Part shown: positions 53,678-58,552 of the stretch, one piece after another | How positions within the stretch are numbered: the first letter of the stretch is position 1 | Layout of the letters: each line of letters starts with the position of its first letter | Origin: Sulfobacillus thermosulfidooxidans | Lineage (GTDB): Bacteria; Bacillota; Sulfobacillia; Sulfobacillales; Sulfobacillaceae | NCBI RefSeq assembly: GCF_001280565.1 | Contig: NZ_LGRO01000001.1 | Span: forward strand, 1-64,000 | Length of the DNA stretch: 64,000 nt | Direction: 5' to 3' | Notes under the pieces: model-generated | Databases searched by the model: none | Seen by the model: the letters and a program-made list of their open reading frames with translations, nothing else | What the model was told of the DNA's origin: nothing | Made by a program: the position numbers and the translations under genes

Positions 53678-54198
53678 TTACTGGCTTCCTTTAACAATCA
53701 GGGGCAACGACTTTAAACCGCGTAAGAGGACATTGGGATTAAAAATCGGGTCGCCATGCAGTTCCAGGGAATAACGAAATAGTTCAGAAAACGCGATGGT
53801 CGCTTCCATCTTGGCCAAGGTCGCGCCTAAGCACATATGAACGCCACGACCAAAAGCCAGGTGCATATTGGGATGACGGTGAATGTCAAACATATCCGGA
53901 TTGGGAAAAATCTCCGGATCCCGATTAGCTTGCGCCAGAACCACGGTTACGGACGCGCCTTTCGGAATGATTTGATCTCCTATAGGGACGTCTTGTTGAG
54001 CCATACGCCCATCCAATTGGACTGGGGACTCAAAACGCAAGCATTCTTCCACGGCATTTGCCCACAATGCGGGTTTAAGACGGAGTTCATTCAGCGCTGA
54101 GGGTGTCATGAGCAAGCGATAGGTGCCAAGACTAATGAGGTTGGTTGTGGTTTCATGTCCAGCGACTAACAATAATAAGGACATCGTTAAAAGTTCTG
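53678..54198 (-). pseudogene. Cytochrome P450, C-terminal part
   Basis: About 174 codons reading from ELLTMSLLLL to the stop at 53678. It contains the oxygen-activating I-helix VAGHETT, the ExxR pair in VEECLRFE, the PERF-like NPDMFDIHR and the haem-binding loop AFGRGVHMCLGA with the axial Cys. Its upstream part is cut off at 54198/54199 by the IS607-type element. It cannot be expressed as a working P450. The remaining pieces are at 56179-56226 and 58032-58500. Confidence 0.93.
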
Positions 54199-55518
54199 CT
54201 ATAAAATCGGTGCGCCATTGTGCGCATCGATTTCTTCCTGCCCCGAAGCCGTTGGCAAGCCAACAGATCTCGCTTCGTTTCTGACAGGCGTGACTTTCCC
54301 GCCGATGCCGGGGTCTTCCGGCACCGTCGATAGGGTTGCCCCCATCGTCGCCACAGGTAGGGCGGTTTCGGTCGCCAGCCGTTTGAGATTGCGCGCCGCA
54401 TTCACATCCCGGTCATGAGTGATGCCGCACGATGGACAGGTCCACCTGCGATCTGTTAAGGTGAGGTCCTGCTTGACAGAGCCACAGCCGGGGGTCGCGC
54501 AGAGTTTGCTACTGGGAAACCAGCGGTCCGCTTCCACTAATCGGGTGCCATACCGTTGGGCTTTGCACTGGAGCAGGGAGAAGAAGCGTCCGAATCCCTG
54601 ATCTGCTATGGCCCGGGCCAAATGACGATTCGCCATCATCCTGCGCACCGACAACGTCTCGATCCCCATCGCTTGGTTTTCGCGACAAAGCCGAGTCGAT
54701 GTCTTGTGCAAGAAATCGTTCCGAAGATTGGCGACCCGCAGATGGGTGCGGGCCATAGAGTTTTTGGCCTTGTCCCAGTTCCGGCTACGCGGCAACCGCG
54801 TGCCTTTCGGCAGGGGTTCGTGCGGGGCTAAGCCGATCTGGACTTTGGCGGCCTGCATTTTTCGGGTAATGCTCCGTTGCCGCATTTTCAGGCGGCGTAA
54901 AGCGCGGCGATGAGCTTGGGGTCCGCCAATCTTTTCTCCCGTAGACAGCGTGGCAAACGTCTTGATGCCGACATCCACGCCTTCCACCCCATGACCCGTG
55001 CGCGTCCGATAATAGATGGCATCCGGCACGGATACGTGAATGGCCAAAAACCATTCATCGGCTTCCCGAAGCACTCGAGCGCCCAAGATTTTGCCGGGGA
55101 ATCGGAGGGTTTCCCGCAAGCGGATCCAGCCGATTTTCGGCAGTTTCACCCGACGTTTTGCGATCTGAAACTTATCGTTTGCCACGTAGAAACTGTCAGG
55201 GGTTTTCCCCTTTTTCTTAAACACGGGGCGGTCATTTTGCTGCGTAAAGAATCGGTGCCACGCGTCGGCTAAATCGGCAAACGGTTGGGCATGCGCATCC
55301 CGATGGATATCGTGGAGCCAGGGATATTGCTGATACTTCAGCGCATTAAACTGCTTCTTCAAGGCAGAGGCTTTGGGCTTCTGTCCAGCAGCATATTGGC
55401 GATTCCACTCAGCTAGCGCCCAATTCCAGACAAACCGGGCCGTTCCGGACGCTTGCTTAAAGTACCGAATCTGATCCGGCGTCGGATCGAGTCGAATCTT
55501 ATGCGCTAACGTCGGCAT
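54199..55518 (-). CDS. tnpB: TnpB-family RNA-guided nuclease
   Basis: A 439-residue TnpB (OrfB, the ancestor group of Cas12). The N-terminal helix-turn-helix-like region (IRLDPTPDQIRYFKQASG) is complete. The RuvC residues are Asp in GVDVGIKTFATLS, Glu in GIETLSVRRM and Asp in THDRDVNAARN; the zinc ribbon is CATPGCGSVK and WTCPSCG. All three acids are present, so the nuclease looks active. The stop codon TAG is the last three bases of the element. The end of the gene contains a hairpin (TGCGC and GCGCA near 54211-54225) that should be the end of the guide RNA scaffold, so the guide would be the adjoining P450 sequence. ATG at 55518 has AAAGGAGG upstream. Confidence 0.92.
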   Translation of the reverse strand: MPTLAHKIRLDPTPDQIRYFKQASGTARFVWNWALAEWNRQYAAGQKPKASALKKQFNALKYQQYPWLHDIHRDAHAQPFADLADAWHRFFTQQNDRPVFKKKGKTPDSFYVANDKFQIAKRRVKLPKIGWIRLRETLRFPGKILGARVLREADEWFLAIHVSVPDAIYYRTRTGHGVEGVDVGIKTFATLSTGEKIGGPQAHRRALRRLKMRQRSITRKMQAAKVQIGLAPHEPLPKGTRLPRSRNWDKAKNSMARTHLRVANLRNDFLHKTSTRLCRENQAMGIETLSVRRMMANRHLARAIADQGFGRFFSLLQCKAQRYGTRLVEADRWFPSSKLCATPGCGSVKQDLTLTDRRWTCPSCGITHDRDVNAARNLKRLATETALPVATMGATLSTVPEDPGIGGKVTPVRNEARSVGLPTASGQEEIDAHNGAPIL

Positions 55519-56125
55519 GAAGGGCCTCCTTTAAGCGTTGGCGGTACTTCCACAATCCGTATAACCGAGCCGAGAAGACATGCGTGATAGTGTGTGAGCA
55601 AATCCTGAACTCATTCCGACCCCGGCCAAAGATGTGCTTGATTCAGCACCACAATCTCGCATCCATGTTGCTGGCAGACCTGCTCAAACCATTCCTCCGA
55701 ATCGGGTCAAGCGATCCGTGTGGGCCCGATTGAGCATGCCACGTCTTCGCCATCCACAGCATCCATTACGGCGAGGAATCGCTTACGATGAAAGTTCAGG
55801 CCCCCATCGATTTCCTCGATGAACTCGACTGTGGCCAGTCCGCGAGCGGTACAGTAACAGCATTGTTCCCATGCTAACCGCGGATTCTTCAAATCCGGTC
55901 GCTGCCTTTGGCTGCTGACACGACAATACGCCATGATCTTTCGGGTCCGGGGGGACGGGGCTGCTGATGGCGGAAGGCCCGGATCTGATCTTCGGTATCA
56001 TAGCGACGACCCGTGGCCGTCCGACCAGTGGGTTTAAGTCGACCCTCCCGATCTCAACGGTGGATGGTCTTGATGTGGACCCCGAGCAGATGGGCTACCT
56101 CATGACTGGTTAATGTGCGATCCAT
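55500..56125 (-). pseudogene. tnpA: IS607-family serine recombinase TnpA, decayed
   Basis: The reconstructed protein begins MDRTLTSHEVAHLLGVHIKT, a MerR-like helix-turn-helix, then the serine recombinase segment YCRVSSQRQRPDLKNPRL with the catalytic Ser. The family Trp after KTIHR is a TGA stop at 56054-56056. A frameshift follows before AYCRVSSQ (about 55930), more frameshifts occur near 55850 and 55720, and the conserved tail (FSARLYGL, RQRLKEALHADV) returns in frame and ends inside the tnpB start. No functional recombinase can be made. Confidence 0.88.
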
Positions 56126-56178
56126 GGCCATATTTTACACTTTTAAGCACAATAACGGAAGCTAGATTATAACTCCGG

Positions 56179-56226
56179 CACTTAGGGTGCCTTCTTGTCC
56201 TTGAACTTGCAGAAGGGTGCTAAGAA
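56179..56226 (-). pseudogene. Cytochrome P450, middle fragment between two elements
   Basis: Forty-eight bases trapped between the IS607-type and IS1634-type elements. On the minus strand they read LLSTLLQVQGQEGTLSA when joined to the neighbouring parts, the loop before the P450 I-helix. One copy of the 6-base duplication (TAAGAA, 56221-56226) is at its edge. With it the P450 frame is continuous from 58500 to 53678. Confidence 0.9.
56221..56226. repeat. Target site duplication of the IS1634-type element, left copy
   Basis: TAAGAA, matched by the copy at 58032-58037. Only one copy is needed to keep the P450 frame. Confidence 0.85.
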
Positions 56227-58031
56227 CTTACTTTCCGCACGTGGCGGGAACAAAAAAATTATTTTTTTTGGGCTGATCGCAAAGGAGATTGGGTATCGCA
56301 TGGCGAAGTAATCTCTTATGAACACACCCATGCCGACACCCGTTGTTGTGGGGGCTGGACCGGTCATCCGAGCCCTCTGTGAGGAAATTGGATTCGTCGA
56401 GGCCATAAATCAGACCGTTGCGTGGGATTCGCAGCGTTGCCACCTGTCGCCCGGCGAACGGATTTTCGCGCTCGTCGTCAATTTGCTGACCGCTCGTCGA
56501 CCTCTGTATCGCGTCCACGAGCAATTTCAGTTAACCGATGTGCCCTTGTTGTTTGGATCCGGCCGCACCGCGGCCGATTTTACGGATGATGCCCTCGGAC
56601 GGGCTCTGGATAAAGTCGCCGCTGCCGGTGGCGCCACCGTCTTCAGTGCCGTTGCAACGCGAGCGCTCTTGCACGACCACGTGTGGACGCCCGATAGTCC
56701 GGTGTTTGTCCACTGGGATAGTACGACCCGCTCGGTCTATGGCACGTATCCGGACACCGGATCCGAGACCGGAGTGCATCCCACCTATGGCCATTCCAAG
56801 GATCATCGTCCCGATCTGCGTCAAATTCTCCTGACGCTGTTGGGGACCCGAGAAGGCATTCCGGTGGTAGGCACGGTGCAAGACGGGAATCTGAGTGATA
56901 AAACCCTCAATGCCGAGATGATTGCGGCCTTAGACGATTACTTTTCGCCTCAGCAACTGCAACAACTGGTCTACGTGGCCGATTCCGCTCTCATCACAGG
57001 TCCTAACTTAAAGGCAATGGCTGACCGTTCACTCCGCTTTCTCTCGCGTTGTCCGGAGACATTTCGAGCCGCGCACGATGCGAAGACGGCCGCCTTGGCG
57101 GCCAACGCCTGGGTTCCCCTCGGCAAAATCGGGGAGCGTGCCGATGCGGCCACCTATGCGGCCGCAGAACAGACCGGCGAAATTGAGGGCCGATCCTATC
57201 GGCTCGTGGTTTATCGCTCCGATCATCTAGCTGAGCGGAAAGCTCACACCATTGCCCGCCAGGTCGAACGGGCCCATAACCAGTTAACCCGGGCGGCGAC
57301 TCGCCTCGCGGAGACCGTGTTTGCCTGTGCTCATGATGCCGAAGCGGCCGTGGCCGCTTGGCGGGCCACCGCCCAATGGCATCATGTCGAGGCGACGGTT
57401 GTCGCGGAAACGCAGGTCCCCAAACGCACGACCCGCGGGCGTCCCCGCCACGATGCCCCCGAACCGGCTACCACCACAGTATACCGGGTCCATCCCACCA
57501 TTGGGGCAGTCGATGCGCAACGCGTGCAGGCGGCACAGGACCGGGCGGCGACGTTTGTCTTAATCACCAATCTACCGGCCTCTTCCTTTGATGCCCGCCG
57601 ATTGCTCGAAGAATACAAAGGCCAGACGGTCATCGAACACCGTTTTCGCTTTTTAAAAGACCCAGCCTTTGTGGATGCGCTCTATGTGCACAAGCCGGAA
57701 CGGGTGGAAGCCTTAGGTTATGTGCTCTTGCTCGCCGCGTTGGTGCTCAGTCTCATCGAACGTCGGGCCCGGCAGGCCCCGCCCCTTCCCACGCCGACTC
57801 GCGGTCTGTTGGCGCGGCCCACCGGGCAGGAGGTGTTACATCATCTGCGCGGACTGATTGTCGTGCCGCTGGATGCCCAGACCCGTCAACTCTTTGTCCC
57901 GGCGGTTCATACCCAGTCGGTGGCGGCCATTTTGGCCGCATTGGGTTTTACGGATACGATTTACACGCAGGTGCCCCCTAGACCCTCGGGATAAATTCCA
58001 CGGCTTTCACCCATCACGTGCGGAAGAGGAG
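56227..58031 (+). mobile_element. IS1634-type insertion sequence
   Basis: A 1805-base element. The left end CTTACTTTCCGCACGTGGCG (56227-56246) and the right end, read on the minus strand, CTCCTCTTCCGCACGTGATG (from 58031) share TTCCGCACGTG in an imperfect terminal repeat of about 22 bases that continues with GGG. Flanks carry a 6-base direct repeat (TAAGAA). It holds one transposase gene. It is inserted into the P450, 48 bases from the IS607-type element. The relative order of the two insertions is unknown. Confidence 0.88.
56318..57994 (+). CDS. IS1634 family transposase
   Basis: A 558-residue DDE (RNase H-like) transposase. The catalytic acids are probably Asp in FVHWDSTTRSVYG (about 131), Asp in YVADSALI (about 220) and Glu in GQTVIEHRFRFLKDP (about 440), and the C-terminal region ends in the usual ALVLSLIERRAR helix. 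The frame is intact and G+C-richer than the neighbouring genes, which suggests a recent arrival. ATG at 56318 is 37 bases after TTGC-AAAGGAG-like sequence that better fits the tiny frame at 56300 (ATG GCG AAG TAA); the true start may be different. Confidence 0.9.
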   Translation: MNTPMPTPVVVGAGPVIRALCEEIGFVEAINQTVAWDSQRCHLSPGERIFALVVNLLTARRPLYRVHEQFQLTDVPLLFGSGRTAADFTDDALGRALDKVAAAGGATVFSAVATRALLHDHVWTPDSPVFVHWDSTTRSVYGTYPDTGSETGVHPTYGHSKDHRPDLRQILLTLLGTREGIPVVGTVQDGNLSDKTLNAEMIAALDDYFSPQQLQQLVYVADSALITGPNLKAMADRSLRFLSRCPETFRAAHDAKTAALAANAWVPLGKIGERADAATYAAAEQTGEIEGRSYRLVVYRSDHLAERKAHTIARQVERAHNQLTRAATRLAETVFACAHDAEAAVAAWRATAQWHHVEATVVAETQVPKRTTRGRPRHDAPEPATTTVYRVHPTIGAVDAQRVQAAQDRAATFVLITNLPASSFDARRLLEEYKGQTVIEHRFRFLKDPAFVDALYVHKPERVEALGYVLLLAALVLSLIERRARQAPPLPTPTRGLLARPTGQEVLHHLRGLIVVPLDAQTRQLFVPAVHTQSVAAILAALGFTDTIYTQVPPRPSG

Positions 58032-58037
58032 TAAGAA
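58032..58037. repeat. Target site duplication of the IS1634-type element, right copy
   Basis: TAAGAA, identical to 56221-56226. Confidence 0.85.
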
Positions 58038-58500
58038 GATCATCCCCCGGATTTAACTTCTTTTCCTGAGTTAAATGATGAAAATAATCGAGGAGTTCCC
58101 AGCGTGCATCTTGTCCTTGTGGACGGATGACCGGTTCTTGTGTGGGGTCGATCATTAAGGCGATTTTCTGGGATAAGGATCGAAAGAGACTACGATCTTT
58201 AGCCGGGACCCCTATTAATTCTGCAATCACCAGAGCAGGTAAAGGAAAAGCGTAGTCCTCAACCAGATTGCCGCTACCATTGTTGACAAAGCTGTCTAAC
58301 AATTCCCGGGCAAGTTCAGCAATATAGGGGCGCAGGCGTTCTAAATGTTTAGGTTGGCATGCACGGTTTACCAGATTGCGCAGGCGCGTATGGTCCGGGG
58401 GATTGGTGACCAGCATGCTCGGCGCAAGGACAGGCAGAGATTGATACTTAGGCTGAGGAGTTCTTGGGGCCGGAGTCCGTTTGATAAAGCGGCCGTCCAT
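58032..58500 (-). pseudogene. Cytochrome P450, N-terminal part, 5' truncated
   Basis: About 156 codons of a class I bacterial P450: RFIKRTPAPRTP, TNPPDHTRLRNLVNRACQP, the FPLPALVIAELIGVP helix and NPGDDLL up to the IS1634-type element, where the frame then reads out into the element and stops at 57961. Typical P450s have about 60 more residues before this; none are found here and the region upstream runs into the odhB terminator. So the gene had a 5' deletion in addition to the two insertions. The frame before ATG 58500 is open back to a TGA near 58536. Confidence 0.88.
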
Positions 58501-58552
58501 TCCTTTATCGGCCTTTTGGGCAGTTTGCCTTAATCATAACGCGAAAAGAAAA

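What the first reader, a model, noticed from the sequence alone, without database searches (positions are those of the whole stretch)
54180..54230. The tnpB stop codon is the last codon of the element, so scaffold RNA and coding end coincide and the guide is P450 sequence
The TAG of tnpB occupies 54199-54201, directly against the P450. A hairpin lies within the last coding bases. In TnpB systems the guide RNA ends at the element's right end and takes its guide from the flank, so the guide here would start CAGAACTTTTAACGATGT, which matches the coding strand of the P450. The protein's C-terminus is thus constrained by RNA structure.
Basis: partly seen in the sequence, partly recalled or inferred. 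Interest (0 to 1): 0.6.

Follow-up and report, generated by a model that had tools for sequence, protein, structure and literature searches.

The report
TnpB guide-RNA scaffold inside its gene
A small mobile element (IS607 type) sits inside a broken P450 gene, and its RNA-guided nuclease gene ends three bases before the element does, so the last 60 or so codons double as the guide-RNA scaffold; this is a well-preserved member of a known kind of system.

Summary
The anatomy is mostly as described, with the boundary off by three bases. The tnpB TAG is at 54201-54199 (minus strand), but the element ends at 54196. An intact P450 ortholog in a sister genome (84-91% DNA identity around the site) gives the empty site, GGAG^AACTTTTAAC. 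The window reads CCGGAG|TTATAATC...TTTTATAGCAG|AACTTTTAAC, and all close relatives end in the same TTTATAGCAG. The guide should therefore start AACTTTTAACGATG, not CAGAACTT. The 2-bp junction (AG), the absence of a duplication and a decayed serine-recombinase tnpA make this an IS607-family element. Twelve left flanks (this one and 11 sister insertions) all read GGAG, 8 of 12 AGGAG, the published TAM of other IS607 TnpBs.

The claim that the C-terminus is shaped by RNA holds. About 185 nt of coding sequence carries a covarying fold. Third codon positions there are nearly as conserved as first and second, unlike in the core. Several relatives have frameshifts or early stops in the tail while the right end stays unchanged. 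Such overlap is already described for ISDra2, whose C-terminal tail is dispensable. Ordinary mechanism, new member; mildly notable because published RAGATH-18 IS607 guides lie outside the gene.

The parts
54196..56172 (-). IS607-family element: left end TTATAATCTAGC... at 56172, right end ...TTTTATAGCAG at 54196 (the AG core counted once, at the right)
   Evidence: Empty site in the orthologous P450 of a sister genome, L102; joined flanks restore an open P450 frame; same ends in relatives
56173..56177 (-). Left-flank target motif CGGAG (inferred TAM); AG at 56174-56173 is the crossover dinucleotide
   Evidence: Present in the empty site of L102 as AGGAG; GGAG at all 11 sister left flanks read
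55505..56125 (-). tnpA remnant: MerR-type HTH plus serine recombinase, broken by in-frame stops and frameshifts
   Evidence: tblastn with the intact tnpA of L022: 41-55% identity in three pieces in different frames, stops inside (frames)
54199..55518 (-). tnpB, 439 aa, intact ORF; RuvC D/E/D and zinc-finger cysteines present
   Evidence: Pfam TNB 1.4e-20, OrfB_IS605 1.5e-19, HTH_OrfB 1.9e-16; NCBIfam guided_TnpB 307.6 bits, cut-off 100; PDB TnpB 8bf8 at 2.5e-52
54196..54380 (-). Predicted guide-RNA (omegaRNA/reRNA) scaffold, about 185 nt, all but the last 3 nt inside tnpB or its stop codon
   Evidence: Consensus fold with covariation on 24 and 11 relatives; 5' limit is inference
54361..54376 (-). 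Scaffold helix 1 (54376-54373 with 54364-54361)
   Evidence: 97.9% of cells paired; 2 of 4 pairs with two-sided changes
54298..54357 (-). Scaffold helix 2 (54357-54354 with 54301-54298), enclosing the variable helix 3
   Evidence: 100% paired but nearly invariant; the Sulfobacillaceae-only fold pairs this stretch differently
54237..54288 (-). Scaffold helices 4 and 5 (54288-54283 with 54242-54237; 54277-54274 with 54247-54244)
   Evidence: 99.3% and 96.9% of cells paired
54203..54234 (-). Terminal hairpin in the last coding bases
   Evidence: in Sulfobacillaceae-type relatives 91.6% of cells paired, 18 two-sided changes, 0 of 500 shuffles as good
54377..54379 (-). GCT, predicted pseudoknot partner of AGC at 54200-54198 (which overlaps the TAG)
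   Evidence: Predicted by RNAalifold on both alignments; invariant, so not tested by covariation; AGC lies at -5 to -3 as in the ISDra2 pseudoknot (PMC10097598)
54196..54201 (-). TAGCAG terminus: stop codon TAG, then C, then the crossover dinucleotide AG
   Evidence: AGCAG invariant in 24 relatives, TAGCAG in nearly all; invariant in 11 Sulfobacillaceae-type right ends
54176..54195 (-). Predicted guide AACTTTTAACGATGTCCTTA (P450 coding strand)
   Evidence: Right flank immediately after the element end; guide length and use inferred from TnpB literature
53678..54195 (-). 3' part of the interrupted cytochrome P450 gene
   Evidence: Pfam p450 2.5e-25; 89% protein identity to the intact gene in G006
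56173..56226 (-). Short P450 fragment between the two insertions, including one copy of the IS1634 target duplication
   Evidence: 54-bp match to L102 at 85%; joined ORF
58032..58500 (-). 5' part of the P450 gene as it remains
   Evidence: 86% match to L102
56227..58031 (+). Second insertion: IS1634-family element with 6-bp duplication TAAGAA (minus strand TTCTTA)
   Evidence: NCBIfam IS1634 transposase 1.3e-87; TSD read

Best explanation
This is an IS607-family insertion sequence (serine recombinase tnpA, now a pseudogene, plus an intact TnpB RNA-guided nuclease gene) inserted in a P450 gene at GGAG^AACTT. Its right end encodes the TnpB guide RNA. The scaffold is nested in the last 60 or so codons of tnpB and runs 3 nt beyond the stop codon, to the AG crossover dinucleotide. 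Transcription through tnpB into the P450 would give an mRNA that TnpB trims to scaffold plus a guide starting AACTTTTAACGATG. The RNP would cut empty copies of this site (TAM CGGAG/AGGAG followed by the P450 sequence) and so favour keeping the element. The element's own right junction reads GCAG, not GGAG, so it lacks the TAM and should be spared. Shown here: ends, family, conserved fold, RNA-type constraint on the tail, conserved left-flank motif. Inferred from characterised TnpBs: transcription, RNA processing, cleavage and its consequence.
For: Empty site and intact P450 ortholog; joined flanks give one open P450 frame. Serine tnpA remnant here and tnpA of the same type beside tnpB in relatives. 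Invariant right end GCAG. GGAG at 12 of 12 left flanks, most located by tnpA homology without regard to the motif. Covariation of the scaffold: 88.5% of cells paired against 36-43% for slid controls, 89 two-sided changes against 35 in shuffles; terminal hairpin. Third-position conservation 0.68 in the tail against 0.47 in the core, above every equal-length core stretch (maximum 0.55), P about 4e-10. Published parallels: PMC10097598, PMC11061315, PMC10711439, PMC10278001.
Against: No RNA or cleavage data. The window TAM has C where most relatives and the ortholog have A (CGGAG against AGGAG), and for ISFba1 any single TAM change abolished cleavage (PMC11061315), so this copy may be weakened. 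tnpA is dead, so excision in cis is unlikely. The predicted pseudoknot is invariant and so untested. The terminal hairpin is poorly conserved as a pairing in the Massilia-type relatives, and could partly serve as a recombinase site.
Confidence: 0.9

Rival explanations
1. One reading: the element ends exactly at the tnpB stop codon, so scaffold and coding end coincide and the guide begins CAGAACTT.
For: The stop is within 3-6 nt of the end in most relatives.
Against: The empty site reads GGAG^AACTT, so C at 54198 cannot be P450 sequence; CAG is invariant at 24 and 11 insertion sites with different flanks; in IS607 the crossover nucleotide at the right junction belongs to the scaffold (PMC10711439).
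Confidence: 0.04
2. The terminal hairpin and conserved end serve mainly as DNA: binding and crossover sites for the serine recombinase, or an intrinsic terminator, and not as guide-RNA scaffold.
For: IS607 ends carry short directly repeated motifs for the recombinase (PMC6188088); the terminator scan flags the hairpin; pairing of this one hairpin is weak in the Massilia-type relatives.
Against: The constraint extends about 185 nt inward with five further helices, most with compensatory changes, far beyond a crossover site; hairpin stems in Sulfobacillaceae-type relatives change almost completely while staying paired (GATCAC forms), which a fixed DNA-binding site would not do; terminator-like hits are at chance level (5 found, 3.0 +/- 2.1 expected).
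Confidence: 0.1
3. The tail is conserved as protein, and nucleotide conservation follows from that.
For: The ORF stays open to the end in most relatives.
Against: Third positions are as conserved as second positions in the last 24 codons (0.716 and 0.705); frameshifts and early stops occur in L122, L124, L138/L047, L030, L035, L042, L043 with the right end kept; the matching tail of ISDra2 TnpB is disordered and dispensable (PMC10097598).
Confidence: 0.03

Closest known systems
ISDra2 TnpB and its omegaRNA/reRNA (IS200/IS605, Deinococcus radiodurans; PMC8612924, PMC10097598)
   Same: omegaRNA overlaps the 3' end of tnpB up to -10 (stop a few nt before the element end), pseudoknot strand at -5 to -3, C-terminal tail of the protein disordered and dispensable, guide taken from the right flank.
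   Different: ISDra2 uses a Y1 transposase and TTGAT target/TAM; here the transposase is a serine recombinase, the flank motif is GGAG and the 2-bp core is assigned to the scaffold.
ISXfa1 TnpB (IS607, Xylella; PMC10711439)
   Same: IS607 type, about 150-nt reRNA across the right boundary, crossover nucleotide is part of the scaffold.
   Different: GG core and GGG TAM there; AG core and GGAG flank here. Sequence relation to ISXfa1 was not tested.
ISFba1 and other RAGATH-18 IS607 TnpBs (PMC11061315)
   Same: IS607 type; AG-rich TAM, 5'-AGGAG in 18 of 22 strains, the same as the left-flank consensus found here; tnpA often a pseudogene.
   Different: Their reRNA lies wholly outside the coding sequence and holds the RAGATH-18 motif; here it lies inside the gene and no Rfam family matches.

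Membership tests
IS607 family | Serine-recombinase tnpA with N-terminal MerR-like HTH | tested here: met
   Remnant at 56125-55505 with stops and frameshifts; homologous serine tnpA beside tnpB in relatives
IS607 family | No target duplication; exchange at a shared dinucleotide | tested here: met
   Only AG is common to both junctions and to the empty site; published IS607 uses GG, here AG
IS607 family | NCBIfam IS607_TnpB model above cut-off | tested here: not met
   219.5 bits, cut-off 350; the IS200_TnpB model scores higher (311.2) but is also under its cut-off of 425. These are narrow exception-type models, and family membership rests on the transposase, not on TnpB
TnpB RNA-guided endonuclease | RuvC D-E-D, zinc finger and TNB domain | tested here: met
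   (guided_TnpB 307.6 bits, cut-off 100); VDVGIK, GIETL and DRDVNAA align to a solved TnpB-type nuclease
TnpB RNA-guided endonuclease | Conserved right-end scaffold RNA contiguous with the flank | tested here: met
   Covariation
TnpB RNA-guided endonuclease | Bound RNA and guided DNA cleavage next to a TAM | not testable with these tools
   Needs small RNA-seq and a TAM depletion or cleavage assay
IS607 TnpB with RAGATH-18 RNA | RAGATH-18 motif downstream of tnpB | tested here: not met
   No Rfam match at E<=1 over 53900-56300; scaffold lies inside the gene
IS200/IS605 family | Y1 (HUH) TnpA | tested here: not met
   The element carries a serine-recombinase remnant instead

The most novel reading that the evidence does not exclude
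The terminal TAGCAG does several jobs at once: stop codon of tnpB, pseudoknot strand of the guide scaffold, recombinase crossover dinucleotide, and a disabled TAM (GCAG instead of GGAG) that protects the element's own right junction. This would be an IS607 lineage whose whole scaffold is nested in the coding sequence, unlike the RAGATH-18 IS607 elements.
Probability: 0.35. Interest if true: 0.4.

Novelty: new member of a known kind. Interest (0 to 1): 0.28.

Why it matters
It gives an IS607 TnpB with both ends defined to the base, an empty target in a sister species, a predicted TAM and a predicted guide, so the homing model can be tested directly. It also shows over dozens of relatives that the TnpB tail evolves as RNA, and that the scaffold end, not the stop codon, is what is held fixed.

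Tried and rejected
Rfam search over the element gave nothing, RAGATH-18 included. No second copy of the element exists in this genome, only a degraded left end and a tnpA fragment, so sister copies were taken from other genomes. A wider phylum search added nothing beyond the family. A search for further genomic targets of the guide found only the G006 ortholog with 1 mismatch and the element's own junction; the 3-mismatch hits are about as many as the control gives. Terminator scan: chance level. Left ends of the Massilia-type relatives could not be fixed without empty sites, so the core and TAM claims are limited to the Sulfobacillaceae-type elements. Pseudoknot by covariation: invariant, cannot be tested; more distant GG-core relatives show GTTCC/GGAAC at what may be the same positions, suggestive only. 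One left-end search used a pattern that contained GGAG and was therefore biased; the left ends were re-read from tnpA homology. Literature search for Sulfobacillus with TnpB: none.

Full report
Observation. The tnpB ORF lies on the minus strand, 55518..54199, 439 aa, and ends in TAG at 54201-54199. The last coding bases fold into a hairpin, 54234-54203, at -15.6 kcal/mol against a shuffled mean of -5.6. The protein is a TnpB with an intact RuvC triad and zinc finger. Downstream is the C-terminal part of a cytochrome P450.

Where the element ends. A genome of the same genus (G006) carries an intact P450 at the same place, next to the same neighbour gene, at 84-91% DNA identity. Its uninterrupted site reads GTGCAGGAGAACTTTTAACC. 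The window reads GTGCCGGAG|TTATAATC on the left and TTTTATAGCAG|AACTTTTAACG on the right. Joining the flanks (and leaving out a second IS, below) gives one open P450 frame...EGTLSAGELLTMSLLLLVAGHETT.... The element therefore spans 56172-54196, and the only bases shared by both junctions are AG. The base C at 54198 cannot be P450, so the stop codon is followed by three more element bases. Relatives agree...AGCAG is invariant at the right end of 24 homologous elements from several phyla, and TTTATAGCAG is invariant in 11 Sulfobacillaceae-type elements, followed by different flanks.

Family. Between 56125 and 55505 lies a broken gene for a MerR-HTH plus serine recombinase (41-55% identity to the intact copy of L022, in different frames and with stops). 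Homologous serine tnpA genes sit upstream of tnpB in relatives. With the 2-bp shared core and no duplication this is an IS607-type element, whose known members exchange over GG (PMC6188088); here the core is AG.

Left flank. In 12 insertions (this one and 11 others, most located by tnpA homology and not by the motif) the left flank is GGAG, and in 8 of the 12 AGGAG. In the window the motif belongs to the target, because the empty site has it. AGGAG is the experimentally determined TAM of 18 of 22 strains with RAGATH-18 IS607 TnpBs (PMC11061315). I infer that it is the TAM here too. The element's own right junction reads GCAG, one base off, so it should not be cut.

Guide. In ISXfa1 the right-flanking crossover nucleotide belongs to the scaffold (PMC10711439). 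Matching the P450 coding strand is a necessary consequence of orientation, not a separate observation. The only good match among 8 genomes of the genus is the ortholog in G006, with one mismatch.

RNA constraint. RNAalifold on 24 relatives finds a multi-helix fold over about 185 nt. On a named structure of 33 pairs, 88.5% of cells pair against 36-43% when slid, with 89 two-sided changes against 35.0 in shuffles. The structure was taken from the same alignment, so the slid control favours it; the excess of two-sided changes is the stronger evidence. The terminal hairpin alone is only moderately supported across all relatives (69.3% paired), but in the Sulfobacillaceae-type set it is 91.6% paired, with 18 two-sided changes against 6.7 and 0 of 500 shuffles as good; some members have replaced nearly the whole stem (TCTTGTGATCACCAACGATCACAAGA) and still pair. 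The two alignments disagree about the partners of the 54357-54332 stretch, so helices 2 and 3 are provisional. Both alignments predict the terminal AGC (-5 to -3) pairing with GCT at 54379-54377; this mirrors the ISDra2 pseudoknot at -5 to -3 (PMC10097598), but it is invariant and untested.

Coding constraint. In codons 1-378 identity at positions 1, 2, 3 is 0.74, 0.80, 0.47; in the tail (57 codons) it is 0.78, 0.75, 0.68. No core stretch of equal length reaches the tail's third-position value (maximum 0.55; Mann-Whitney P about 4e-10; codons and sequences are not independent, so the P value is indicative). The stop lies 3 or 6 nt before the end in most relatives, but 18 nt in L030, L042 and L043, 60 in L138/L047, 63 in L124, 100 in L035, and past the end in L122 after a 1-nt loss. 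The RNA and the end are kept, while the stop can move. In more distant GG-core relatives the stop is about 40 nt before the end.

Comparison. Overlap of omegaRNA with tnpB to within a few nucleotides of the element end, with a disordered and dispensable protein tail, is documented for ISDra2 (PMC10097598; PMC11844463), and TnpB can cut its guide from its own mRNA (PMC10278001). What is less usual is finding this in a serine-recombinase element, since the RAGATH-18 IS607 reRNAs are separate from the gene (PMC11061315). ISXfa1 may share the arrangement; I could not check.

State of this copy. tnpA is dead, tnpB and scaffold look intact, and the left-flank motif has C for A. The element may still supply a working nuclease, but it probably cannot excise by itself. 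The host P450 is broken three ways: this element, an IS1634-family element (56227-58031, 6-bp duplication) and an apparent 5' deletion of roughly 195 bp relative to G006.

Noticed in passing
56227-58031: A complete-looking IS1634-family element (558-aa transposase) in the same P450, 54 bp from the IS607 left end, with 6-bp duplication TAAGAA.
   Followed up: partly
58500-58540: Compared with G006 the window lacks about 195 bp around the P450 5' end, so the P450 had lost its start as well as taking two insertions.
   Followed up: partly
L006 (reverse strand from about 2757): A degraded left end of the same IS607 subfamily (78% over 220 bp) elsewhere in this genome, also preceded by AAGGAG.
   Followed up: partly
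L020 1501-1690: A second fragment of the same tnpA region in this genome (about 82-84% identity), without tnpB beside it.
   Followed up: no
L122 right end: A 1-nt loss in the terminal hairpin shifts the tnpB frame so that its stop lies in the host flank, which means the protein end would differ at each insertion site.
   Followed up: partly
L046 4700-4725 and 6334-6350: A possible 6-7 bp direct repeat (GGCATGA) at the two ends of a Thermomonas relative, unexpected for IS607; may be chance.
   Followed up: no
G000 (own genome): 17 other matches to the TnpB TNB domain in this 3.8-Mb genome, 16 above the Pfam cut-off, several with long open frames.
   Followed up: no
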